Source of the DNA: Herbaspirillum sp.
GTDB lineage: Bacteria; Pseudomonadota; Gammaproteobacteria; Burkholderiales; Burkholderiaceae_D
Length of the DNA: 39,174 bases
Direction: 5' to 3'
Assembly (NCBI GenBank): GCA_028291765.1
Contig: JAQGNR010000077.1
Location: 1-39,174 of the forward strand
In this document: positions 25,193 through 37,016 of the stretch, one piece after another
Position numbering within the stretch: position 1 is the stretch's first letter
Layout: every line of letters starts with the position of its first letter
Made by a program: the position numbers and the translations under genes
Notes under the pieces: generated by a model
Databases searched by the model: none
What the model saw: only the letters and a program-made list of their open reading frames with translations
Told to the model about the DNA's origin: nothing

Positions 25193-27403
25193 TCAAAACG
25201 CTAAACGATAAGCCTCGCTAGTGGCTGCAAGCCGGCCGGCCAGCATGGTGACCACATAGTTATGCAGTTGCATCGCTACCGCCGGTGCATCGGTTTCCAG
25301 TTCGCGCAAATGCTGCAGCGATAGTTTGTGAACGCGCGTCGGGCTATCGGTTCGGACATCGGCGGTGCGCTGTTGCCCGGTATATAAAGACATCTCGCCC
25401 ACGATGGTGCCGCTGCCGAATGCGCGCAGCCGCACCTTTTCGTTGCCGTCCAGCGGCACGGAAATACTGACCTGGCCGTGCTCGATGAAATACATGCCGT
25501 CGCCTGTGTCCCCTTTCTGGAACAGCAAGGCGCCGGTATCGAGATTGACGGTTTGCAGCCGGGAGTAGAGGTGCTGCCAATGTTCGTCGCCGAAATGCTC
25601 GCGAAAGCCGTGTTGCCAGTCCGGCGCGCCGTGTGCGGGCGATGATTTCGCCAGTAAAACATTTTCAATCCATTCCAGCGCAGTATCGAGTGTATCGAAT
25701 TCGCGCACTGCGCCGCCAAGTTCGCAGGCACGCTCGATCGGCAGGCGCGCATTATCCGGAATGTCGGTCATGATCAGCGTGATGCCGTGCTGTTCGCATA
25801 TCTGGCGCAATTTAATGAAGCTTTGCGAAGTCGATGCATCCATGCCCTGCACGCGACGGAAATCGATCAGCACAAATTCCACCTGCGACGACAATTGTTC
25901 GCGCACGCGATTGACCATCTGGTTGGCGCTGCCGAAAAAGAGATAACCCTGCAGGCATACCCCGAAAACACGTTCGCCGTGCGCTTTGAGCAAGGCGCCG
26001 GTTTCAATGGCGCGTTCCAATCTGGAGGTGAGCGAAGCGCCGGTGAACTCCATTTTGATACAGGAAACACGACCGTAATCGACTACAAACAGCACGCAAG
26101 CGACCACGATACCCAACGCCACGCCGGTCACAAAACCCGACCAGGCAATGACGACCAGAATCAACAGGATCAGCAGGTAGTCGCTGGTGGCCAGACGCTG
26201 TCTGGCTTTCCATACCCATTCCTTTAGCAGCAAGCAACCCAGGCCTGTAAGCAATCCCACCAGCAAAGACTTCGGAATCAGCGCGACTGCATTGGAGAAA
26301 AAGCATGCGCACAACAGACATAAAAATGCCGCAATGACGCCGGAAATACGGTCGCGGCTGCCGGACTGAAAATTGAGCAGCGAGCGGCTCAGCGATTGAC
26401 TGCCGACCGCGCCGCCGAGCGCGCCGGAGATGATGTTGGCAAAGCCGGCGCTGCGCAATTCATGATTGAAGTCGACGTCGCGCCGCGTTGCCAGGCTGAT
26501 CCCGGTGGAGTTAAGCAGGATCGTGAGCGTGACGACGGTAATCATGGCGAGCAGGTCGCTATAGTGCGCGGCGATGACGCCCCAGCGCACTTCAGCCCAC
26601 GGCAGCATTGCCGGAAACTGAAAGCCGTGTAGCGTCAGCGGCTCAAACAGCCATCCCATGCTGCGCGCCTGTTGTATGCTCACGCCGCTGAGATGCAGGT
26701 TGGTAAAGAACAGGATCGTCGCCGCGATCAAGGTCAGCGGCAGCAAGGGCGGATATGCCCGTTTGAGCAGGGAGGAGCCCAGCATCACGCCGGCGATCAG
26801 GATGGATGGCAACCACACCTGCCATGGCAGATTCAGCAATTCGCGCAAGCCTGCAAGACTCAGATGATGGCCGGTCGCAATGCCGAATGCGCCGCTTAGC
26901 AGCAAATAGCCGGTGCCGGCCAAAAAGCCGCCAACGACGGGAAACGGGATGAACTGGACCAGACTGCCGCGCCGCAAAGCACCGAGGGCGGCCATGAATA
27001 TACCGGCGGCGATTGTGCTCAGCGCAACGGCCATCAGGATTGTCACCGTCGCTTGCTGCGGCGTGCTGCCCGCATTGTGCAGGTCCGCCGCAATGCCTGC
27101 AGCCATCAGCGCCAGCACCCCGGCGGAATTGGAATCGATGCCTGCCACAATAAACGGCACGGAGCTGGTCCAGGACACCAGAAATTGCATGGTAAATGCC
27201 GACAAGAGCACCAGCGGAATGCCTGCTGCCAGTAATGCGCTGCCGCCGCTGCCGAAAATCATTGCGCCGTAACTGACGGCATAGCTGAGTGAAATCAGCG
27301 CAACGATAAAGGCCGAAAGCGAGCCGCCAAGCACTTTTGAGAGGCCGGCTTGAAATTTTGACGGTTGCTGCAAACTGCTTTCATTAATCGCGGGGGTATG
27401 CAT
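25193..27403 (-). CDS. SulP-family transporter with STAS and cNMP-binding domains
   Basis: The 736-aa protein has three parts. An SLC26/SulP transporter core (about residues 20-440) has around twelve helices and includes DSNSAGVLALMAAG and GALGGAVGSQSLSRSLLN. A STAS domain (about 475-590) contains FVLIDFRRVQGMDASTSQSF. A Crp-like cyclic-nucleotide-binding domain (about 612-728) carries the phosphate cassette GEMSLYTGQQRTADV at 669-683. SulP proteins move sulfate, bicarbonate or dicarboxylates. The open frame reaches 27550, but the first 49 codons lie in spacer-like sequence, so the ATG at 27401-27403 (MHTPAINESS) is used. It follows the RND genes on the same strand by 143 nt, and the substrate is unknown. 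Confidence 0.92.
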   Translation of the reverse strand: MHTPAINESSLQQPSKFQAGLSKVLGGSLSAFIVALISLSYAVSYGAMIFGSGGSALLAAGIPLVLLSAFTMQFLVSWTSSVPFIVAGIDSNSAGVLALMAAGIAADLHNAGSTPQQATVTILMAVALSTIAAGIFMAALGALRRGSLVQFIPFPVVGGFLAGTGYLLLSGAFGIATGHHLSLAGLRELLNLPWQVWLPSILIAGVMLGSSLLKRAYPPLLPLTLIAATILFFTNLHLSGVSIQQARSMGWLFEPLTLHGFQFPAMLPWAEVRWGVIAAHYSDLLAMITVVTLTILLNSTGISLATRRDVDFNHELRSAGFANIISGALGGAVGSQSLSRSLLNFQSGSRDRISGVIAAFLCLLCACFFSNAVALIPKSLLVGLLTGLGCLLLKEWVWKARQRLATSDYLLILLILVVIAWSGFVTGVALGIVVACVLFVVDYGRVSCIKMEFTGASLTSRLERAIETGALLKAHGERVFGVCLQGYLFFGSANQMVNRVREQLSSQVEFVLIDFRRVQGMDASTSQSFIKLRQICEQHGITLIMTDIPDNARLPIERACELGGAVREFDTLDTALEWIENVLLAKSSPAHGAPDWQHGFREHFGDEHWQHLYSRLQTVNLDTGALLFQKGDTGDGMYFIEHGQVSISVPLDGNEKVRLRAFGSGTIVGEMSLYTGQQRTADVRTDSPTRVHKLSLQHLRELETDAPAVAMQLHNYVVTMLAGRLAATSEAYRLAF

Positions 27404-27546
27404 CTTTTTTGATTTTTTTCCGGTGGATGCGCGGTTATAAATAATGACACGTGAGCAGCCGGGAGTATGCCGCAAGAGTATGACGAAAATGTGACGAAAA
27501 GATAACAAACCGAAGCCGCAGAAGCGGTAGAAGCTGCAAGCGGCGA

Positions 27547-30500
27547 TCAAATCAATGCCGGCGGCTGATGCATTTCAGGTTCCGCTTTAGGCCGCTTGCG
27601 CCCCACCAGCCGCACCACCAAACGCTCAAACGAATCAACATACGTAAACACCACCGGCACAATCAATAAACTCAACGCCGTCGAGGTCAGCAGGCCGCCA
27701 ATGACCGCAGTGGCCATGGGCTGCCGGAAACTTGCATCGGCGCCCAAGCCAAGCGCGATCGGCAGCATGCCTGCAATCATCGCCACCGTCGTCATGACAA
27801 TCGGGCGGGCGCGCTTATGGCAGGCATCAATCAAGGCATCCTGCAAAGACAAGCCACGCTCGTGGATGCCGACGACCGCATATTCGACCAGCAGAATCGA
27901 GTTCTTGGTCACAATCCCCATCAGCATGACCAGGCCGATCATGGCCGGGATATCGAGCTCGCTGTGCGCCGCCAAGAGCGCTACGAAGGCGCCGCCGAGC
28001 GAGAGCGGAATCGCCGAGAGAATGGTGATCGGCTGCAGGAAATCCTTGAACAGCAATGTCAGCACGCAATACACGCATAACACGCCGATGATGATCGCCA
28101 TGCCGAATCCCGATGCCAGCTCGGCCGCGATTTCGGCATCGCCGGTCTGGATCAATCGCACGCTCGATGGCAGCGCTTTGACCGCCGGCAGCGCGCTGGC
28201 CGCGGCGAGCGCCGCGCCGAGCGGCATGCCGCCCAGATCTGCGTTGACGGTGACGTAGCGGTGACGGTCGTAGCGGCTGATTTGCGAAGGACCGCTTTCG
28301 ACCGACAGGCTGGCGACGCTGGAAAGCGGCACCAGGCCGTTGCGTCCATTGACGCGCATGTTGGCCAGCGTGTCGATGTTCTGCCGGGCCGCATCGGCGA
28401 TGCGCACGCGCATATAGACCTGCCGATTGTCGAGATTGAGCCGCGCGACATTCGCATCGAAATCGCCGCTGGTGGCGATGCGCACCACGGTGCCGATGGC
28501 CGCTGTGGTGACGCCGCGTTCGGCAGCGCGCTCAAGGTCGGGACGGATGATAATTTCGGGCCGTTCAAGGCTGGCCGTTGAATTGATATTGGACAAGCGG
28601 CCGACGCCGCGCAGTTCGCGCTCCAGCAACTGCGCGCTGTGTTTGAGCGCCTCGGCGTTGTCGCCGGCAAGAATCAATTGCATCTTTTCGCCGATGCCGC
28701 CGCTGCCCACGGTGAAGCGGGCGCCGGGCACGCCGATTAATTTCTTGCGGATCGCGGTCTCGATGGCGACTTGCTTGTCGCGTTCGCCGCGTGGCTTCAG
28801 CGTCAGGATCAGCGCGCCCTTGCGCACTTCGCCCGCCTGCCGCACGCCGTCGCCTGCCAGCAATGCATCGCCGATCGTGGTGAACACGTTCTGGATGCCG
28901 GCGACATCGGCCAGCGCAGCCCGCGCGGCTTCGGTAACGGCAAACGTATTCGCGACGGAGCTGCCGGGCGGCAATTCGATATTGATCGTGGTGAATCCGC
29001 GGTCGGCCGGCGGCACCAGTCCGGACGGAATCAAGGGCACCAGCGCCACCGAGGCCGCGAAGAACAAGGCGCCGGCGGCGGCGCTGGTCTTGCGATGCGT
29101 CAGGCACCAGGCCACGGCGGACAGATACCAGAGCATGACGCGGCCATCCTCGCGTTCTTTGGCCGGCCGCGTTTTGAGCAGATAGGCCGCCATCATCGGC
29201 GTCAACAGCCGCGCCACCAGCAAAGAAGCGAGCACCGCGATCACCGCGGTCCAGCCGAACTGCCTGAAGAACAGGCCGGGCACGCCGCTCATCATCGCCG
29301 TCGGCAGAAATACCACCACCAGGCTCATCGTAGTGGCGATCACGGCCAGTGCGATTTCGGTGACGGCATCGGTGGCCGCTTGCATGATCGGTTTTCCCAT
29401 GTGGCCGTGACGTTCGATGTTTTCAATCTCGACAATCGCATCGTCGACCAGGATGCCGACGATCACCGCCAGCGCCAGCAAGGTCAAGGTGTTGAGCGAA
29501 TAGCCCAGCCAGGACATGGCGGCAAAGGTCGGCAGAATGGATAAGGGCAGGGCGGCGGCGGAAACCAGTGTGGCGCGCCAGTCCCGCAAAAAGGCCCAGA
29601 CCACCAGCACGGCCAGCAGCGCGCCTTCATACAGCATGTCCATCGAGCCTTTGTATTGCTCCAGCGTGTAGCCGACGGTGCCGGAGATGGCGGTAAAGCT
29701 GAGCGAGGTATCGTCGCGCTTCAAGCGATCCAGTACCTGCCTGACGTTCTGGGCAATCAGCGTTTCATCGAAACCCTTGGCGCGATAAATCTTGAAGCCG
29801 ACCACCGGCTTGCCGTCGAGCAGCGCCATCTGGGTGCGCTCGGCGATGCCGTCATGGACGCTCGCCAATTGGTCGAGCCGCACTTCGCGGCCATTCGCCA
29901 ATGCGATCGGGAAGGCCGCCAGATCGGCCGCCTGGCGCACCGTCGCGACGGTGCGCACCGATTGCTCGGCTAGTCCCAGTTGTCCGCGCCCGCCGGAAGA
30001 TTCCTGCTGCACCTGGCGCAGCGCGAGCGAGACTTCGGCTGCAGTAACGCCGAGCGCGGTCAAACGCACCGGATCGACTTCAATACGGACTTCGCGTTGC
30101 ACGCCGCCGACCCGTTCGAAGCGCGCCACGCCGGGCACGCCGAGCACGGTCTTGGCCAGCGTATCGTCGACATACCACGACAGCGCTTCTTCATCCATGT
30201 GTGAAGAAGTGGTCGAATACATCAGCATGGCTTCGCCGGCGGAGGTGACCGAGGTGACCGTGGGCTGTTGCAGATCGGTGGGAAGATCGGAGCGCACGCT
30301 ATCGACGGCGTTCTTGGTTTGAATCAAGGCATCGGAAAGATTTTTTTCGAGTTCGAACTGGACCGAGATCGACACCTTGCCGTCGGTGACGGTGGTGTAG
30401 AGATGCTTCAGGCCAGATAGCGTGGCCAGCGAATCTTCCACTTTGCGCGCGACCTCGGTTTCAAGCTGCGCCGGCGCCGCGCCGGGCTGGACCAGCATCA

Positions 30501-30639
30501 CGTTGATGGTCGGCAGATCGATATCCGGCATGTTCTGAACCGGCAACTCGTGAAAGCCCCAGATGCCCGCGAGTGTGAGCAGCACAAACAGCAGTATCGC
30601 CGGAATGGGATTGCGAATGGACCAGGTAGCGAAATTCAT
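27547..30639 (-). CDS. RND efflux pump, inner-membrane permease (AcrB/MexB-like)
   Basis: The 1030-aa protein is the proton-driven inner-membrane component of a tripartite efflux pump. It begins NFATWSIRNPIPAILLFVLL and has twelve helices with two large periplasmic loops. The proton-relay residues are present: Asp399-Asp400 in GILVDDAIVEIENIERH, and a lysine near 912 in GIVTKNSILLVEYAV. The overall pattern is hydrophobe/amphiphile (HAE)-like rather than metal-exporting. An open frame extends to 30834 but overlaps the adaptor gene, so the ATG at 30637-30639 is used, 4 nt past the adaptor stop. The outer-membrane channel is encoded separately at 34010-35482. Confidence 0.96.
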   Translation of the reverse strand: MNFATWSIRNPIPAILLFVLLTLAGIWGFHELPVQNMPDIDLPTINVMLVQPGAAPAQLETEVARKVEDSLATLSGLKHLYTTVTDGKVSISVQFELEKNLSDALIQTKNAVDSVRSDLPTDLQQPTVTSVTSAGEAMLMYSTTSSHMDEEALSWYVDDTLAKTVLGVPGVARFERVGGVQREVRIEVDPVRLTALGVTAAEVSLALRQVQQESSGGRGQLGLAEQSVRTVATVRQAADLAAFPIALANGREVRLDQLASVHDGIAERTQMALLDGKPVVGFKIYRAKGFDETLIAQNVRQVLDRLKRDDTSLSFTAISGTVGYTLEQYKGSMDMLYEGALLAVLVVWAFLRDWRATLVSAAALPLSILPTFAAMSWLGYSLNTLTLLALAVIVGILVDDAIVEIENIERHGHMGKPIMQAATDAVTEIALAVIATTMSLVVVFLPTAMMSGVPGLFFRQFGWTAVIAVLASLLVARLLTPMMAAYLLKTRPAKEREDGRVMLWYLSAVAWCLTHRKTSAAAGALFFAASVALVPLIPSGLVPPADRGFTTINIELPPGSSVANTFAVTEAARAALADVAGIQNVFTTIGDALLAGDGVRQAGEVRKGALILTLKPRGERDKQVAIETAIRKKLIGVPGARFTVGSGGIGEKMQLILAGDNAEALKHSAQLLERELRGVGRLSNINSTASLERPEIIIRPDLERAAERGVTTAAIGTVVRIATSGDFDANVARLNLDNRQVYMRVRIADAARQNIDTLANMRVNGRNGLVPLSSVASLSVESGPSQISRYDRHRYVTVNADLGGMPLGAALAAASALPAVKALPSSVRLIQTGDAEIAAELASGFGMAIIIGVLCVYCVLTLLFKDFLQPITILSAIPLSLGGAFVALLAAHSELDIPAMIGLVMLMGIVTKNSILLVEYAVVGIHERGLSLQDALIDACHKRARPIVMTTVAMIAGMLPIALGLGADASFRQPMATAVIGGLLTSTALSLLIVPVVFTYVDSFERLVVRLVGRKRPKAEPEMHQPPALI

Positions 30640-30643
30640 GGCG

Positions 30644-31837
30644 TCAGTTCTTTGCCGTGGTCGAGGCAGGCGCAGCGGCAGAGGTAAACGCGGCGGTAGG
30701 TACAGCGGTAGTAACAGCCGCAGCCGCAGCCGCAGCCGTATCGGCCAGACGCACCACATCACCCTCGTTGAGGAAACCTGCGCCTTGCACCACAATCCGG
30801 TCGGCGCTGGTGAGGCCTTGCACAATCTCGGCATCGGCGCCGGCGCGGCGGCCGACGGTCACGGCCTGCAAGCTTACTTTCGGCGTAGCGCTGCCATCGG
30901 CCAGTTTCAGTACATAGCTGCGGCCGTCGCGAATCACCACGCTTTGCGCCGGGACCACCAGCGCCGGGCTTTGTCCCAGCACGATAAGGCCGCTGGCATA
31001 CATGCCGGCACGCGCTTGGCTGCCCGCATCGAGATCGGCATAGACCAGGCCCAGGCGCGATTGGGTATCCAGCGAGGGCGCGCTTTGACGTACTTTGGCG
31101 CCGGCCTTGCTGCCGTCAGGCAGGGTCAGGGCGATATGTTGTCCGATCTCGATATGGGTCAGCTGCGCTGCCGTGAGTTCGCCGCGCCACTCCAGGCGAT
31201 TGCGGCGGATCAGCCGAAACAATTCCTGTCCGACCGGCGCCACCGCGCCCAATGTTGCGGTGCGGGCGCTGATGACGCCATCATCGGGCGCCACCACTTT
31301 GGTATAGCGCAGTTGCAATTGTTTGGAGGCGAGCTGTGCGCGGGCAGTCTTGGCCTGGGTCACGAACTGCAGCACATCCTGATCGCTGATGCCGCCGCTG
31401 CCTTGCAAGGCAAGCATGCGTTGGCGATTGGCTTCGGCCTGATCCAGATTAGCTTGCAACAGCGTCTGATCGGCCAATAGCAGCGCCGGATCGAGTTGCG
31501 CCAGTATCTGGCCTTTTTTGACTTGATCGCCGACATTGACGCGCACGGCGATTAATTGATAGCCGCCGATCTGGGTGCCGATGCTGGCTTCCTGCCAGGG
31601 GGCGATGGCGCCGGAGGTCTCAAGCGTTGTCGGCAAGATGATGCGGTGCGGCATTGCGCTGGTAACGGTCAGTGCGGGCGCCGGTGGCGTGGCCTTTGCA
31701 GCCGAGCCGGCGTCGTGCAGCATGACGAACCCGCCGATGCCGAGCGCGAGGATGAGGGCAATCGCCAGTGCGCCATACACGAAGCGCAGGTTTGACTTGC
31801 CGGCGGTGGAGTCGATCAGAGGAGGGCGAGAAGGCAT
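30644..31837 (-). CDS. RND efflux pump periplasmic adaptor (MFP/HlyD family)
   Basis: The 397-aa protein links the RND permease to the outer-membrane channel. It has an N-terminal membrane anchor (about residues 18-40, FVYGALAIALILALGIGGFV) and no lipobox. A lipoyl/biotinyl-like half follows (IGTQIGGYQLIAVRVNVGDQVKKGQILAQLD), then an alpha-helical hairpin (LLADQTLLQANLDQAEANRQRML...), the second lipoyl half (YTKVVAPDDGVISARTATLG), and beta-barrel and membrane-proximal domains. The C-terminus is an Ala-rich tail encoded partly by a GCAGCC repeat (around 30718-30738). It is co-transcribed with the permease gene. It faces away from oxc across a 346-nt gap that holds the shared oxc/frc-type operator. 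Confidence 0.94.
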   Translation of the reverse strand: MPSRPPLIDSTAGKSNLRFVYGALAIALILALGIGGFVMLHDAGSAAKATPPAPALTVTSAMPHRIILPTTLETSGAIAPWQEASIGTQIGGYQLIAVRVNVGDQVKKGQILAQLDPALLLADQTLLQANLDQAEANRQRMLALQGSGGISDQDVLQFVTQAKTARAQLASKQLQLRYTKVVAPDDGVISARTATLGAVAPVGQELFRLIRRNRLEWRGELTAAQLTHIEIGQHIALTLPDGSKAGAKVRQSAPSLDTQSRLGLVYADLDAGSQARAGMYASGLIVLGQSPALVVPAQSVVIRDGRSYVLKLADGSATPKVSLQAVTVGRRAGADAEIVQGLTSADRIVVQGAGFLNEGDVVRLADTAAAAAAAVTTAVPTAAFTSAAAPASTTAKN

Positions 31838-32183
31838 GCTTTTTTTATTGGTAAGGGATGCGAATCAGGCAAGTATCAGGCAACATTGCAAGCAACGCCG
31901 CAGGCAACCTTGCCAACGGCTGGCTTTAGTGGCGATACTAGCAAAAAGAGGGGAAAATCAGGTTGGCTATCATGCGATGAAAATTGACCGTGGTCAATGA
32001 TGCAAGCGCGACCAAATCGATATGATAGGGGCCCACTTAAGTAGCGTCGCGCTGCGCTGCGCGCGTGTTTAATGGGAAAGCTTGCCTTTCAAGTATGAAA
32101 ATGGCCGCAAAAAGCGCGGTGTTTTATTGGCAAGTACCGGGACCAACTCGGCCTCAATCGAAACTTACGAAGAGAATATCACT
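31838..32183. other. Divergent control region of the RND adaptor gene and oxc
   Basis: These 346 nt contain the palindromic element and TATGAT box of oxc (31978-32026) and about 150 nt of predicted oxc leader, which includes the GC-rich hairpin CGCGC-N6-GCGCG at about 32049-32064. An open frame from a TTG at 32082 joins oxc in frame, but Oxc homology starts at the ATG at 32184. I found no separate gene. Confidence 0.65.
31978..32026 (+). promoter_or_regulatory. oxc promoter with palindromic activator-like site
   Basis: The core TTGACC-GT-GGTCAA spans 31984-31997. The 23-nt region 31978-32000 differs at one base from that upstream of frc. A -10 box TATGAT lies at 32021-32026, starting 37 nt after the core begins, and there is no good -35. 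If the transcript starts near 32033, the site is centred near -42, the usual place of a class II activator such as the CRP/FNR group, whose TTGAN-N4-NTCAA half-site architecture it resembles. The regulator is not known. Confidence 0.75.
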
Positions 32184-33893
32184 ATGAAAAACGACATTCA
32201 AGCAGCAGCGGGCGTCGAACTGACTGACGGCTTCCATCTTCTGATGGATGCGCTGGAAATGAACGGCATCACGAACATATACGGTCTGCTGGGCATCCCG
32301 GTGACCGAGGTTGGCCGCATTTGGCAAGCACGCGGCAATAAATTTTTCAGTTTCCGTAATGAACAAAACGCTGGCTACGCAGCGTCGGTCGCTGGTTATC
32401 TGACGAAAAAGCCCGGTATTTGCCTGACTGTGTCCGCGCCTGGCTTTTTGAACGGCCTGACCGCACTGGCAAACGCCACCACCAACTGCTTCCCGATGAT
32501 CATGATTTCCGGTTCGTCGGAACGCGAAATTGTCGACCTGCAGCAGGGCGACTATGAAGAGATGGATCAGCTGAACATCGCGCGTCCGCATTGCAAGGCT
32601 TCCTTCCGTATCAACCGTGTCGAAGACATCGGCGTAGCGGTTGCCCGCGCAATACGTACTGCGTTGTCCGGCCGTCCAGGCGGTGTCTATCTGGACATCC
32701 CGGCGCGTCTGTTCAGCACCACAATGCCTGCCGAAGAAGGCAAGAAAACAGTGTTCGTTCCTGTCGATCCGGCACCGGCGCAAATTCCTGGCCCTGACGC
32801 AGTGCAACGCGCAGTGGACCTGATCAAGGGCGCCAAGAAGCCATTGATTCTGTTGGGCAAAGGCGCGGCTTACGCGCAATGCGACGCCGATATCAAGGCA
32901 CTGATCGAAGAAACCGGTATTCCTTTCACACCAATGTCGATGGCCAAAGGCCTGGTTTCCGATACGCACCCACAAAGCGGCGCTGCTGCTCGTTCGATGA
33001 TTCTGCAAGAGTCCGACGTTGTTGTCCTGATCGGCGCGCGTTTGAACTGGTTGTTGTCGCATGGCAAGGGCAAAACTTGGGGCAGCAGCCCGAAGAAATT
33101 CGTTCAAATCGATATTCAAGCCAACGAAATGGACAGCAATGTCCCTATCGCTGCGCCGCTGGTTGGCGACGTCCAATCTTGCGTCAACGCATTGCGCGCT
33201 GGCCTGAAGGGCATGACCAAGCCGACCGAATGGATGAGCGCCGTTGCTGAGCGCGCAGCCGGCAGCCGCGACAAACTGGCCGTCAAGCTGACTACCCAGA
33301 CCCCTGTGATGAACTATCACAATTCGCTGGGCGCAATCCGCGACGTGCTGAAAAACTACCCGGACATCACGCTGGTCAATGAAGGCGCAAACGCGCTGGA
33401 TAACGCGCGTATGGTCATCGATCAATACCTGCCGCGCAAGCGTGTCGACACCGGCACCTGGGGTGTCATGGGCGTGGGTATGGGCTCGGCTGTTGCCGCA
33501 GCGGTTGAAACCGGCAAGCCAGTTGTTGCGATTTGCGGCGACAGTGCATTCGGCTTCAGCGCGATGGAATTCGAAACCATCACCCGTTACAACCTGCCTG
33601 TTACCGTGATCATCATGAACAACGGCGGTATCTATCGTGGTGACGAAGCGAGCCCTGCGCATCAGTTCACATGCATGTCGTTCAATCCGAATACCCGTTA
33701 TGACCAGCTCGGTATTTCCCTCGGTGGTGAAGGCGTTAGAGTCACCACTTCGGCAGAACTGGCCAAGGCGCTGGAAGATTCGATCAAATCCGGCAAGTCA
33801 ACGCTGATCGATGCCATCATCGATCCAGCTGCGGGCGTTGAATCGGGCCGTATCGGCAATCTGAATATTGTCAGCTCGATCGGCAAGAAGTAA
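32184..33893 (+). CDS. oxc: Oxalyl-CoA decarboxylase
   Basis: Oxc is the thiamine-diphosphate enzyme that converts oxalyl-CoA to formyl-CoA and CO2, the central step of oxalate breakdown. The 569-aa length equals that of the Oxalobacter enzyme (568), and the sequence follows it closely. Features include [16 protein letters not shown], the catalytic-glutamate region [16 protein letters not shown] with Glu60, [21 protein letters not shown], and the ThDP/Mg site from GDSAFGF at about 452 to [15 protein letters not shown] lies about 9 nt before the ATG at 32184. It has its own promoter and a strong terminator, so it is monocistronic. Its partner frc lies 1.9 kb downstream, beyond the channel gene on the other strand. 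Confidence 0.97.
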
Positions 33894-33943
33894 TCAGGTA
33901 ATTAATTTCCCGTGGCGCAAGCTGCGGGAAGTAAGTTGTTCAG

Positions 33944-33984
33944 AGTCTGGCGCATTCCGGTAACGGGATGCGCCAGACTTTTTT
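33944..33984 (+). terminator. Terminator of oxc
   Basis: A 12-bp perfect stem (33944-33955 with 33968-33979) continues as CCG/CGG around a GTAA tetraloop. It is followed by six T (33979-33984), starting 51 nt past the oxc stop. Confidence 0.95.
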
Positions 33985-34009
33985 GCATTATGCGTTGCTT
34001 ATGTGTTGC

Positions 34010-35482
34010 TTATGCGTCGCCTGATGCGTTGCCTGATGCACGCATCAGATCGACCCAGGCCTGGGCGCGGTCGCGGGCGGCAGCGATCGCGCTTTCCTGG
34101 GCGGTGTTGTACAGGCGTCGCGTGTCTTCAAGTTCGAAGCGGCTGATCGCACCGGCTTTCCAGCGTGCTTCGTTGGCGCGCAAGCCAAAATGCGCGGCCG
34201 CAGTTGCCTGCTGCGATGTGATTACGCGTTGTTCCGCCGATTGCTGTGCGGCGAGCGCATCTTCGATGTTTTGCACCGTGGTGCGCAGCGTCGAGCGCAA
34301 GCTTGCGACGGCTTGCCGGTAGCGTGCTTCGGCGCCGCGCACATTGGCTGCGCCGCTGCCGCCGTCGAACAACGGCGCGCTCAGATTGGCGCCGACCGAC
34401 CAGGTATCGAAATGCGCCGATTGGCCGAAGGCCGACAGCCATTGTCCGGTCAGCATGGCGGCCAGATTGATTTGCGGCAGGCGATTGGCGCGCGCCACGC
34501 CGATCTCGGCCCAACTTGCTGCGGCTTCGCGTTCGGCCGAAATGATGCTCGGATGACCCAGCAGAACCTTGGCCGGCAGGGCCGCTTGAAAGGGCGGCGG
34601 CACTGGCATCAGCAGATCGATATCTGTTGTGCCGATGGTTGTAGACGATGCTGGTTCTTGAGAGTAGGCCAGCGGCCGCGTCACCCATTCGCGCACGCCG
34701 GCGGCATCGAGTCCGCTGAGCGCTACCAACGCATCGACCGTGCGGGTGCATTGTTCTTGTTGGCTGATGCGATTGGTGCGGGCATTGGCCTGATTGCTGC
34801 TGGCATTGGCTTCATCAACCGGCGCTACATTGCCGACGGCAAGGCGGCGGCGCATCAGGTCCAGTTCGGTATCGCGCGAGGCGATATCTGCGTCGCGGAT
34901 CCGCAATGAATAATTACAGGCGCGCAAGGTGAGTACGCCATCGGCGATTTGCGCGGCCAGCGAGAGGCGCGCGCCTTGTGCATCGGCATCGCGCGCATCG
35001 AGCCGGCGGCGCGCGGCCTCGGACGATTCGCGCAGACGGCCCCATAGATCGAGTTCCCAACTGAAACTGGGACCGATCGAAGCGGAGTTTGTGAGTAGGG
35101 TAAACGGCGGATTGACCGAGGCGATGTTCTGGCTGCTGGCGCGCGCGGCACTGGCGCTGAGGCGGGCTTGCGGCAGTTGTTGCGCCTGGTTCACGCCGAG
35201 CGTCGCGCGCGCTTCATCGATGCGCGCGACCGCTTGCGCCAGCGTCGGTTGATCGGCATAGGCGGCATCGATCAAAGCGTCAATCGCCGGGTCGTGCAAT
35301 TGTTTCCACCAGGATGTATTTAAGTTTGAGGTGCTCGCGCTGCCGTCGGATGGCGTTGCAGCGCCGGCATTGGCCCATGACGCCGGCAATGCCAGCGCAG
35401 GCCGTTGATAATCCGGTTGCGTGCTGCATGCAGCGAGCCACAGAGCGCTGGCCAGCAGCGCTGCCCGGCTCAAAATGACCAT
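34010..35482 (-). CDS. RND efflux outer-membrane channel lipoprotein (NodT/OprM family)
   Basis: This outer-membrane exit duct of 490 aa is a TolC-like trimer subunit. A lipoprotein signal is present, with lipobox LAAC (Cys19 counted from the ATG at 35482, Cys27 from the ATG at 35506). Two repeated helical halves follow with SWWKQLHDPAIDALIDAAYADQPTLAQAVARI and, in the second half, LLGHPSIISAEREAAASWAEIGVARANRLPQI. The 35482 start is favoured by GGAAA 7 nt upstream. The 35506 start has no ribosome-binding site but would add positive charges to the signal peptide. It is transcribed away from frc and is separated from its presumed pump partners by oxc. Confidence 0.92.
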   Translation of the reverse strand: MVILSRAALLASALWLAACSTQPDYQRPALALPASWANAGAATPSDGSASTSNLNTSWWKQLHDPAIDALIDAAYADQPTLAQAVARIDEARATLGVNQAQQLPQARLSASAARASSQNIASVNPPFTLLTNSASIGPSFSWELDLWGRLRESSEAARRRLDARDADAQGARLSLAAQIADGVLTLRACNYSLRIRDADIASRDTELDLMRRRLAVGNVAPVDEANASSNQANARTNRISQQEQCTRTVDALVALSGLDAAGVREWVTRPLAYSQEPASSTTIGTTDIDLLMPVPPPFQAALPAKVLLGHPSIISAEREAAASWAEIGVARANRLPQINLAAMLTGQWLSAFGQSAHFDTWSVGANLSAPLFDGGSGAANVRGAEARYRQAVASLRSTLRTTVQNIEDALAAQQSAEQRVITSQQATAAAHFGLRANEARWKAGAISRFELEDTRRLYNTAQESAIAAARDRAQAWVDLMRASGNASGDA

Positions 35483-35643
35483 GGTGATTTTCCGTGATGA
35501 AGACATGTGAATGCGTTTTCGCGTTTCGATTAGGGTGCAACTATTTTGTAGTTTCGGAGTATATATGCACTACCGGCAGCGAGGCCTGCATCGACAAAAG
35601 CGTCGAATTGAGCGCACAATTTGTCATGCAGTCGGTGATCCGG

Positions 35644-35692
35644 TGAAAATTGACCATGGTCAATGAGGGTTGCGTTAACGCCTCGCTATGAT
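35644..35692 (+). promoter_or_regulatory. frc promoter with palindromic activator-like site
   Basis: The core TTGACC-AT-GGTCAA spans 35650-35663 and is a perfect 14-nt palindrome. The 23-nt region 35644-35666 matches the one upstream of oxc at 22 positions. The -10 box TATGAT lies at 35687-35692, again starting exactly 37 nt after the core begins. The predicted leader to the ATG at 35769 is about 70 nt. The element also faces the promoter side of the divergent outer-membrane channel gene. Confidence 0.76.
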
Positions 35693-35768: not shown

Positions 35769-37016
35769 ATGAGCAAAGCACTGGACGGCGTTCGCATTCT
35801 TGATTTCACCCATGTGCAATCGGGGCCGACCTGCACGCAATTGCTGGCCTGGTTCGGCGCCGATGTGATTAAGGTCGAGCGTGCCGGCGAAGGTGATGCC
35901 ACGCGTACACAATTGCGCGATATTCCTGGCGTCGATAGTTTGTATTTTACGATGCTCAATCACAACAAACGCTCCATCACGCTCGACACCAAGACGCCTA
36001 AAGGCAAGGAAGTGTTGGAGACGTTGATCAAGCAATGCGATGTACTGGTCGAGAATTTCGCGCCGGGCGCATTGGACCGCATGGGCTTCACCTGGGCGCG
36101 GATTCAAGAGCTTAATCCGAAGATGGTCGTGGCTTCGGTCAAAGGTTTCGGCCCCGGTCCGTATGCCGATTGCAAGGTCTATGAGAATGTGGCGCAATGC
36201 ACCGGCGGCGCAGCATCTACTACCGGTTTCGATGATGGCCCACCGATGGTGACCGGCGCGCAAATCGGCGACAGCGGCACCGGTTTGCATCTTGCATTGG
36301 GTATTGTGACTGCGTTATATCAGCGCACCCATACCGGACGCGGGCAAAAAGTCGATGCGGCGATGCAGGATTCGGTGCTTAATCTGTGCCGCGTCAAGTT
36401 GCGCGATCAGCAGCGCCTGGAACGCACCGGCCGCATGGAAGAGTATCCGCAATTTCCAAATGGTGAATTCGGCGATGCGGTGCCGCGTGCGGGCAATGCT
36501 TCCGGCGGCGGTCAGCCCGGCTCGATTCTCAAATGCAAGGGCTGGGAAAGCGATCCTAATGCGTATACCTATTTCATTACGCAAGGGCAGGCATGGGAAT
36601 CGATCTGCAAGGTGATTGGACGGGAAGAGTGGATTACCGATCCCGATTACGCAACGCTGCAGGCACGTTTGCCGCGTTTGGCATCGATCTTCGAGACGAT
36701 CGAGGAATGGACCAAAACCAAGACTAAATTCGAAGTGATGGATATATTGAATAAATTCAATATCCCTTGCGGACCGATTTTGTCGATGAAGGAAATTGCC
36801 GCAGAACCGTCGCTGCGCGCCACCGGCACCATCGTCGAGGTCGATCATCCTGAACGCGGCAAATATTTGACTGTAGGCAACCCGATCAAGTTGTCCGATA
36901 GCAGCACCGAAGTGACCCGTTCGCCGCTGCTGGGTGAGCATACCGATGAGGTGTTGATGCAATTGGGTTATAGCGCGCAGGACATCGCTGCTATGCGCGA
37001 AGAGCGGGTGATTTAA
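35769..37016 (+). CDS. frc: Formyl-CoA:oxalate CoA-transferase
   Basis: Frc moves CoA from formyl-CoA to oxalate, making oxalyl-CoA for Oxc and releasing formate. The 415-aa protein is a class III CoA-transferase with the family start [22 protein letters not shown]. The catalytic Asp168 lies in [15 protein letters not shown] and corresponds to Asp169 of the Oxalobacter enzyme. The glycine-rich active-site loop SGGGQPG has Ser in the first position where the Oxalobacter enzyme has Gly. It lacks the short insert that Oxalobacter Frc carries before this loop, as does the similarly sized E. coli enzyme. GGAGA lies 8 nt before the ATG. It is monocistronic with its own operator-bearing promoter. 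Confidence 0.96.

What the first reader, a model, noticed from the sequence alone, without database searches (positions are those of the whole stretch)
31978..35692. Shared palindromic element with fixed -10 spacing defines a two-unit oxalate regulon
oxc and frc are separate transcription units. A 23-nt element (31978-32000 and 35644-35666) is identical at 22 positions, with core TTGACC-N2-GGTCAA. In both, a TATGAT box starts exactly 37 nt after the core start, and neither has a good -35. This puts the element near -42, the position of class II activators. The core resembles CRP/FNR half-sites (TTGAN-N4-NTCAA), but other families such as GntR could also bind it. I know of no described oxalate-responsive regulator with this site. 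The regulator itself is not in the window.
Basis: partly seen in the sequence, partly recalled or inferred. Interest (0 to 1): 0.82.

Follow-up and report, generated by a model that had tools for sequence, protein, structure and literature searches.

The report
CRP/FNR-type regulator of oxalate breakdown
Two matching DNA switches in front of the oxalate-degrading genes are real, and they belong to a wider set of switches that travel with one dedicated regulator protein of the CRP/FNR type, giving a concrete candidate for how these bacteria turn oxalate breakdown on.

Summary
In detail: TTGACC-N2-GGTCAA lies at 31984 (oxc) and 35650 (frc), each with TATGAT exactly 37 nt downstream and no good -35. 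It is not chance: about 0.25 exact cores are expected in this genome and 5 occur. All five have a -10-like hexamer at +37; they precede oxc, frc, the fds formate dehydrogenase, a second frc, and a porin-like gene. The regulator, absent from the window, is in the same genome (contig C305): a 202-residue CRP/FNR-family protein divergent from the second frc, with a site between them. Among 80 public oxc loci the regulator is found in the fetched stretch of 28; all 28 carry the element before oxc, against 1 of the other 52. In 300 genomes of the order, regulator and oxc co-occur (46 both, 8 regulator only, 5 oxc only). FNR is unlikely here: this genome shows no FNR-family match. The regulator lacks conserved cysteines and CRP's cAMP-contact residues; its recognition helix keeps the E..SR pattern expected for TTGA. 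Best explanation: an oxalate-pathway-responsive CRP/FNR activator at class II position. Binding, activation and effector are inferred, not shown.

The parts
31984..31997 (+). palindromic core TTGACCGTGGTCAA upstream of oxc (conserved 23-mer 31978-32000)
   Evidence: core half-sites invariant in an alignment of 7 chosen oxc upstream regions
32021..32026 (+). -10-like box TATGAT, core start +37, no good -35
   Evidence: best -10 at offset 36 or 37 in 23 of the 28 regulator-adjacent oxc loci, shuffled mean 1.5
32184..33893 (+). oxc, oxalyl-CoA decarboxylase
   Evidence: TIGR03254 880 bits, cut-off 739
35650..35663 (+). palindromic core TTGACCATGGTCAA upstream of frc (conserved 23-mer 35644-35666)
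   Evidence: same arrangement before separately placed frc genes in the five further genomes looked at
35687..35692 (+). -10-like box TATGAT, core start +37
35769..37016 (+). frc, formyl-CoA:oxalate CoA-transferase
   Evidence: TIGR03253 732 bits, cut-off 504; CoA_transf_3
31969..31974 (-). CATGAT on the reverse strand, 17 bp beyond the TTGACC half-site read as a -35; perhaps left over from an ancestral regulator/oxc divergent promoter (inferred)
   Evidence: CATNAT at the same place on the regulator side in 11 of 20 regulator loci

Best explanation
The element is the operator of a dedicated CRP/FNR-family activator (202 aa; in this genome at G000:C305:3049-3657, minus strand). The dimer reads TTGAC-N4-GTCAA and contacts RNA polymerase from about -42.5 (class II), replacing the missing -35. 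When oxalate, or a product made from it (oxalyl-CoA or formyl-CoA), is present, it turns on oxc, both frc genes, formate dehydrogenase (fdsG onwards) and a porin-like gene. On the regulator side the same TTGACC can, in part of the family, serve as the regulator gene's own -35, so binding there would also repress the regulator. Shown: site, spacing, conservation, regulon membership by sequence, co-occurrence and adjacency with the regulator, superfamily and fold of the regulator. Inferred: binding, activation, effector, autorepression.
For: (1) 5 of 5 exact cores in the genome lie in front of oxalate, formate or porin-like genes, each with a -10-like hexamer at +37: TATGAT x3, TAAGAT, TATTTT. 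(2) Of 80 public oxc loci the regulator is in the fetched stretch of 28, and 28 of 28 have the core with at most 2 mismatches within 400 nt of oxc (27 with at most 1), against 1 of 52 without it; shuffled upstreams 1.4%. (3) Best -10 at offset 36 or 37 in 23 of those 28, shuffled mean 1.5, maximum 8 in 500 rounds. (4) 300 genomes of the order: regulator 54, oxc 51, both 46. (5) All 54 regulator hits have E below 1e-70, so the family is sharply bounded. (6) frc is in the fetched stretch of 23 of 24 regulator genomes examined; the exception, G035, has its site near a contig end. (7) No FNR-family match in G000, G016 and G026. (8) E191, S194, R195 in 40 of 40 regulators. (9) AlphaFold2 pLDDT 93.7; Z 19.5-19.9 to CRP, GlxR and FNR structures.
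Against: No binding, expression or transcript-start data. Co-occurrence is not corrected for phylogeny; in a 398-genome phylum draw the 8 regulator genomes are all of one order. 5 of 28 loci do not have the best -10 at 36/37. 8 of 54 regulator genomes lack canonical oxc and 5 of 51 oxc genomes lack the regulator. The bare core also occurs elsewhere: 30 exact cores in the 50 regulator-less genomes, against 24 in the 11 with it. No HTH Pfam hit: the chain ends just after the recognition helix. The porin-like protein matches no family model. Other CRP/FNR paralogues of this genome were not tested as binders. The effector rests on gene neighbourhood alone.
Confidence: 0.84

Rival explanations
1. 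The sites are ordinary FNR/ANR boxes, so the oxalate genes respond to oxygen through the general FNR protein.
For: Half-site TTGA and 14-bp length are those of FNR boxes (recalled). The eight other regulator genomes among the relatives do have an FNR-family match. A regulator-less same-genus genome (G009) has FNR and a degenerate box TTGACGTGGATCAA before its frc-oxc-frc genes.
Against: G000, G016 and G026 have no FNR-family match at E<=1e-20 (three of the six such genomes of 61), yet carry exact, regularly spaced sites; the element follows the dedicated regulator in the oxc loci. An FNR gene missing from the assembly, or a distant paralogue, is not strictly excluded.
Confidence: 0.05
2. Another family (GntR, MarR or TetR type) binds the palindrome, and the CRP/FNR gene is only a linked neighbour.
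For: A palindrome alone does not name a family. In alphaproteobacterial oxc loci without the element the DNA upstream of oxc looks like a GntR-type coding region (judged by eye, not tested).
Against: The CRP/FNR gene co-occurs even where unlinked to oxc: in G000, G016, G026, G038 and G043 it is on another contig than oxc. Its E..SR helix suits TTGA.
Confidence: 0.07
3. The CRP/FNR regulator binds there, but its signal is formate, heme/NO, redox or another metabolite, or it acts without a ligand as FixK-like proteins may.
For: The regulon includes formate dehydrogenase and, in G041 and G047, formate-tetrahydrofolate ligase. Four invariant histidines H7, H129, H150, H155. No cAMP or Fe-S signature.
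Against: Near the regulator, frc is found in 23 of 24 genomes examined, a formate dehydrogenase alpha-like gene in 7 of 24.
Confidence: 0.35

Closest known systems
E. coli CRP (cAMP receptor protein), class II promoters
   Same: CRP fold; dimer site near -41.5/-42.5 overlapping the -35 region (promoter class recalled)
   Different: positions aligned to CRP G71, E72, R82, R123, T127, S128 are T, S/A, Y/F, mostly L, I/V, M in the 40 regulators (CRP residue roles recalled, pairing read from the alignment); NCBIfam CRP model 29 bits for this protein, cut-off 266; half-site TTGAC, not TGTGA (recalled)
FNR/ANR
   Same: TTGA half-site, 14-bp palindrome, E..SR recognition helix (FNR features recalled)
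   Different: no conserved cysteine, hence no Fe-S cluster site; model NF008365 at 13-17 bits in three of four tested, no hit in the fourth, cut-off 228
FixK/FixK2
   Same: box written TTGANCNNGNTCAA (recalled) fits TTGACCNNGGTCAA; FixK2 structure 4i2o Z 16.6, 2.2 A over 163 residues
   Different: 17% identity; oxalate gene neighbourhood instead of microaerobic genes (recalled)
CprK (recalled only)
   Same: a CRP/FNR member that senses a catabolic substrate and activates its pathway
   Different: chlorinated aromatics and a TTAAT box; not compared by any search
3dn7, Cytophaga hutchinsonii cyclic-nucleotide-binding regulatory protein
   Same: best sequence match in PDB (E 1.2e-13), also 194 aa and ending soon after the recognition helix
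   Different: 16% identity over the 145 aligned residues of chain B; function not stated

Membership tests
CRP/FNR superfamily | N-terminal cyclic-nucleotide-binding-type beta roll | tested here: met
   PF00027 41.5 bits, cut-off 27.5, and above cut-off in all 5 proteins tested; fold match over residues 9-202
CRP/FNR superfamily | C-terminal winged helix HTH | tested here: inconclusive
   No HTH Pfam hit in 5 proteins; the model's recognition helix 190-198 aligns with CRP/FNR but the chain ends there, without the wing
FNR | cysteines for the [4Fe-4S] cluster | tested here: not met
   no cysteine column conserved; the best is 15 of 40
FNR | NCBIfam NF008365 above cut-off | tested here: not met
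   at most 17 bits in 4 proteins, cut-off 228
CRP | cAMP-contact residues (recalled: E72, R82, S83, T127) | tested here: not met
   S/A, Y/F, S/A/T and I/V in 40 sequences; only S83 is commonly kept
FNR-type DNA recognition | recognition helix E..SR reading TTGA (recalled) | tested here: met
   E191, S194, R195 in 40 of 40; site TTGA...TCAA. Reading itself not tested
class II activator promoter | site centred near -41.5, no -35 hexamer | tested here: met
   core centre about -42.5 if TATGAT is the -10; best -35 match 3 of 6; start site not mapped
oxalate-sensing regulator | binds oxalate or its CoA derivatives | not testable with these tools
   needs purified protein

The most novel reading that the evidence does not exclude
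A CRP/FNR subfamily dedicated to oxalate, with a non-cAMP, non-Fe-S pocket that senses oxalate or oxalyl-/formyl-CoA, whose single palindrome activates oxc on one side and represses its own gene on the other; its regulon also marks a second, non-orthologous oxalyl-CoA-cleaving ThDP enzyme in genomes without canonical Oxc.
Probability: 0.38. Interest if true: 0.72.

Novelty: new member of a known kind. Interest (0 to 1): 0.63.

Why it matters
In the open-licence papers searched I found no described regulator of the oxc/frc pathway in these bacteria. Here is a specific protein, its site and its regulon, present also in a genome (G043) whose 85%-identical Oxc and 1.9 Mb size suggest Oxalobacter (inferred, not named by any search), the genus studied for kidney-stone prevention. 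It makes the control of oxalate breakdown directly testable, offers a possible oxalate biosensor part, and suggests a further oxalate enzyme by association.

Tried and rejected
Chance: rejected. FNR as the regulator in this genome: unlikely. A GntR or other family: no positive evidence at element-bearing loci, but not tested directly.

One search's first adjacency count (27 loci) missed the Duganella aceris regulator because my simple ORF caller preferred an antisense ORF; exposed this and the tblastn recount (28 loci) supersedes it. Several of the 52 regulator-less loci are short contigs, so absence there is absence from the fetched stretch only; 16 of them were searched as whole genomes and 0 has it. 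In one search, L015 fell outside the 300-nt search stretch; its site (L015:1501) has TATGAT at +37. One search fixed the spacing at 37 and so misses 36-nt promoters; it listed 31 places, 24 in the 54 regulator genomes and 7 in the other 246, with one reversed-control hit (G050). In one search (up to 3 mismatches) 24 places were listed: 6 with 0-1 mismatch, 2 with 2 (reverse readings of the C157 and C257 sites) and 16 with 3, of which most look like background; the control columns read 0, and I cannot tell whether they allow the same mismatches, so I lean on the 0-1 mismatch rows only. Some ORFs are on the wrong strand, an artefact of the same caller; gene counts near the regulator were redone by tblastn.

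The divergent -10 on the regulator side is not general: 11 of 20 loci; loci with equally similar regulators (L126, L138) lack it. An RNA element in the oxc leader: no Rfam match, weak consensus fold. The structural look-ups give the superfamily, not the effector.

Papers: search listings only (one search returned none); passages by term search in PMC9812493 (no occurrences), PMC4764995, PMC12927642 and PMC12542777. None of what I saw names a regulator of oxc or frc of this type; a passage of PMC12542777 reports formyl-CoA transferase, oxalyl-CoA decarboxylase and a putative oxalate/formate antiporter upregulated together in Collimonas pratensis.

Full report
OBSERVATION. The two 23-mers (31978-32000, 35644-35666) agree at 22 of 23 positions and both cores are followed by TATGAT exactly 37 nt after the core start; hexamers at the -35 distance match the consensus at no more than 3 of 6. 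The exact core is found at these two places only in the window. In the whole genome (4,675,503 bases held) it occurs five times where base composition predicts about 0.25.

REGULON IN THIS GENOME. The five places are: oxc (C118:31984), frc (C118:35650), fdsG, the gamma subunit of formate dehydrogenase (C257:314-356 minus; the gene is cut by the contig end, and its counterpart in G026, L024:1110-1589, scores 242 bits with NF004638, cut-off 198), a second frc (C305:3719; TIGR03253 723 bits), and a porin-like gene (C157:1226; named only by likeness to a gene beside the regulator in G072 that has a weak trimeric-porin match). All five have a -10-like hexamer at +37; the spaced search lists, at 0-1 mismatch, these five promoters plus one reverse reading of the C305 site. 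A second porin-like paralogue has TTGATCCTGATCAA with TATTTT at +37 (C157:3383).

THE REGULATOR. Divergent from the second frc at C305 lies a 202-aa CRP/FNR-family gene. Homologues occur in 11 of 61 genomes (own plus relatives; 61-100% identity) and in 54 of 300 genomes of the order, 58-100% identity and every hit below 1e-70; in 398 genomes of the phylum 8 have it at E<=1e-20, all of the same order. Oxc at E<=1e-140 occurs in 51 of the 300; both in 46 (Fisher p about 5e-40, not corrected for relatedness). Among the 61, 10 have both, G035 has the regulator only and G009 oxc (58% identity) only.

SITE AND REGULATOR TRAVEL TOGETHER. All 28 carry the core (7 exact, 20 with one mismatch, 1 with two) within 400 nt upstream of oxc; of the 52 without it one does (L087, two mismatches, a 3.9-kb contig), close to the 1.4% of shuffled upstreams. 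Of 16 such regulator-less oxc genomes searched whole, 0 has the regulator anywhere. In an alignment of 7 chosen oxc upstream regions, AAATTGACC-N2-GGTCAATGA and TATGAT are invariant while the spacer is more variable. The frc element recurs before separately placed frc genes in G016, G026 and G036 (exact core, TATGAT at +37) and in G043 and G093 (one mismatch, TAAGAT/TAACAT at +36).

WHICH PROTEIN. G000, G016 and G026 give no FNR-family match, as do three other genomes of the 61; 55 of 61 do, including the other eight regulator genomes. The regulator lacks conserved cysteines and most residues that hold cAMP in CRP, but keeps E..SR in the recognition helix in 40 of 40 sequences. AlphaFold2 gives pLDDT 93.7 and the CRP/FNR fold (ten best rows Z 19.5-19.9, 2.2-2.5 A over 189-192 residues). 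The chain stops after the recognition helix, without a wing.

HOW IT PROBABLY WORKS. A site centre near -42.5 with no -35 suggests class II activation (inferred). On the regulator side the same TTGACC stands 17 bp from CATNAT in 11 of 20 loci examined, so in part of the family the regulator may repress itself (inferred). In G041 and G047 the core also precedes formate-tetrahydrofolate ligase. In the stretches fetched around the regulator of 24 genomes, frc is present in 23, a formate dehydrogenase alpha-like gene in 7 and an OxlT-like antiporter in 6; G035, the exception for frc, has its site near a contig end. The eight regulator genomes without canonical oxc in the 300 all have frc there, and seven also a different ThDP enzyme, 23-24% identical to Oxc and no further from glyoxylate carboligase (23-26%); three were tested against NCBIfam and fit best PRK05858 at 449-498 bits, below its cut-off of 587. 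The near-constant partner is therefore oxalate/CoA chemistry, which points to oxalate or a CoA ester as effector; this is the least certain step.

VERDICT.

Noticed in passing
window 27547-35506: oxc sits, on the opposite strand, between the outer-membrane gene (34010-35506) and the HlyD/RND genes (27547-31837) of an efflux operon whose counterparts are contiguous in G026 (C7:18104-23744; 81, 75 and 87% identity), so oxc was inserted or the operon was split.
   Followed up: partly
window 25193-27550: A SulP-type transporter with STAS and a C-terminal cyclic-nucleotide-binding-type domain near the oxalate genes; whether it carries oxalate is unknown.
   Followed up: no
L242:8102-9868, L243:8580-10280, L244:4703-6403, L290:9728-11365: ThDP enzyme next to the regulator and frc in seven genomes without canonical oxc; fails the oxalyl-CoA decarboxylase model in the three tested, possibly a non-orthologous replacement.
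   Followed up: partly
window 32027-32183: Long oxc leader with a partly conserved CCTTTCAAGTA block; Oxalicibacterium and Herminiimonas leaders add an inverted repeat CTCTAAAAA...TTTTTAGAG; no Rfam match and only a weak consensus fold.
   Followed up: partly
G000, G016, G026: Three regulator-bearing genomes of this genus give no FNR-family match although 55 of 61 genomes do.
   Followed up: no
L257 (G009): A same-genus genome without the regulator has frc-oxc-frc genes with a degenerate TTGA-N6-TCAA box upstream, perhaps under FNR instead.
   Followed up: no
L250:14488-15411; similar ORFs in L243, L244, L247, L249, L251, L255, L258: A methionyl-tRNA-formyltransferase-like gene near frc in several regulator genomes (the L250 copy: TIGR00460 161 bits, below cut-off 201.5; the others judged by their N-termini).
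   Followed up: no
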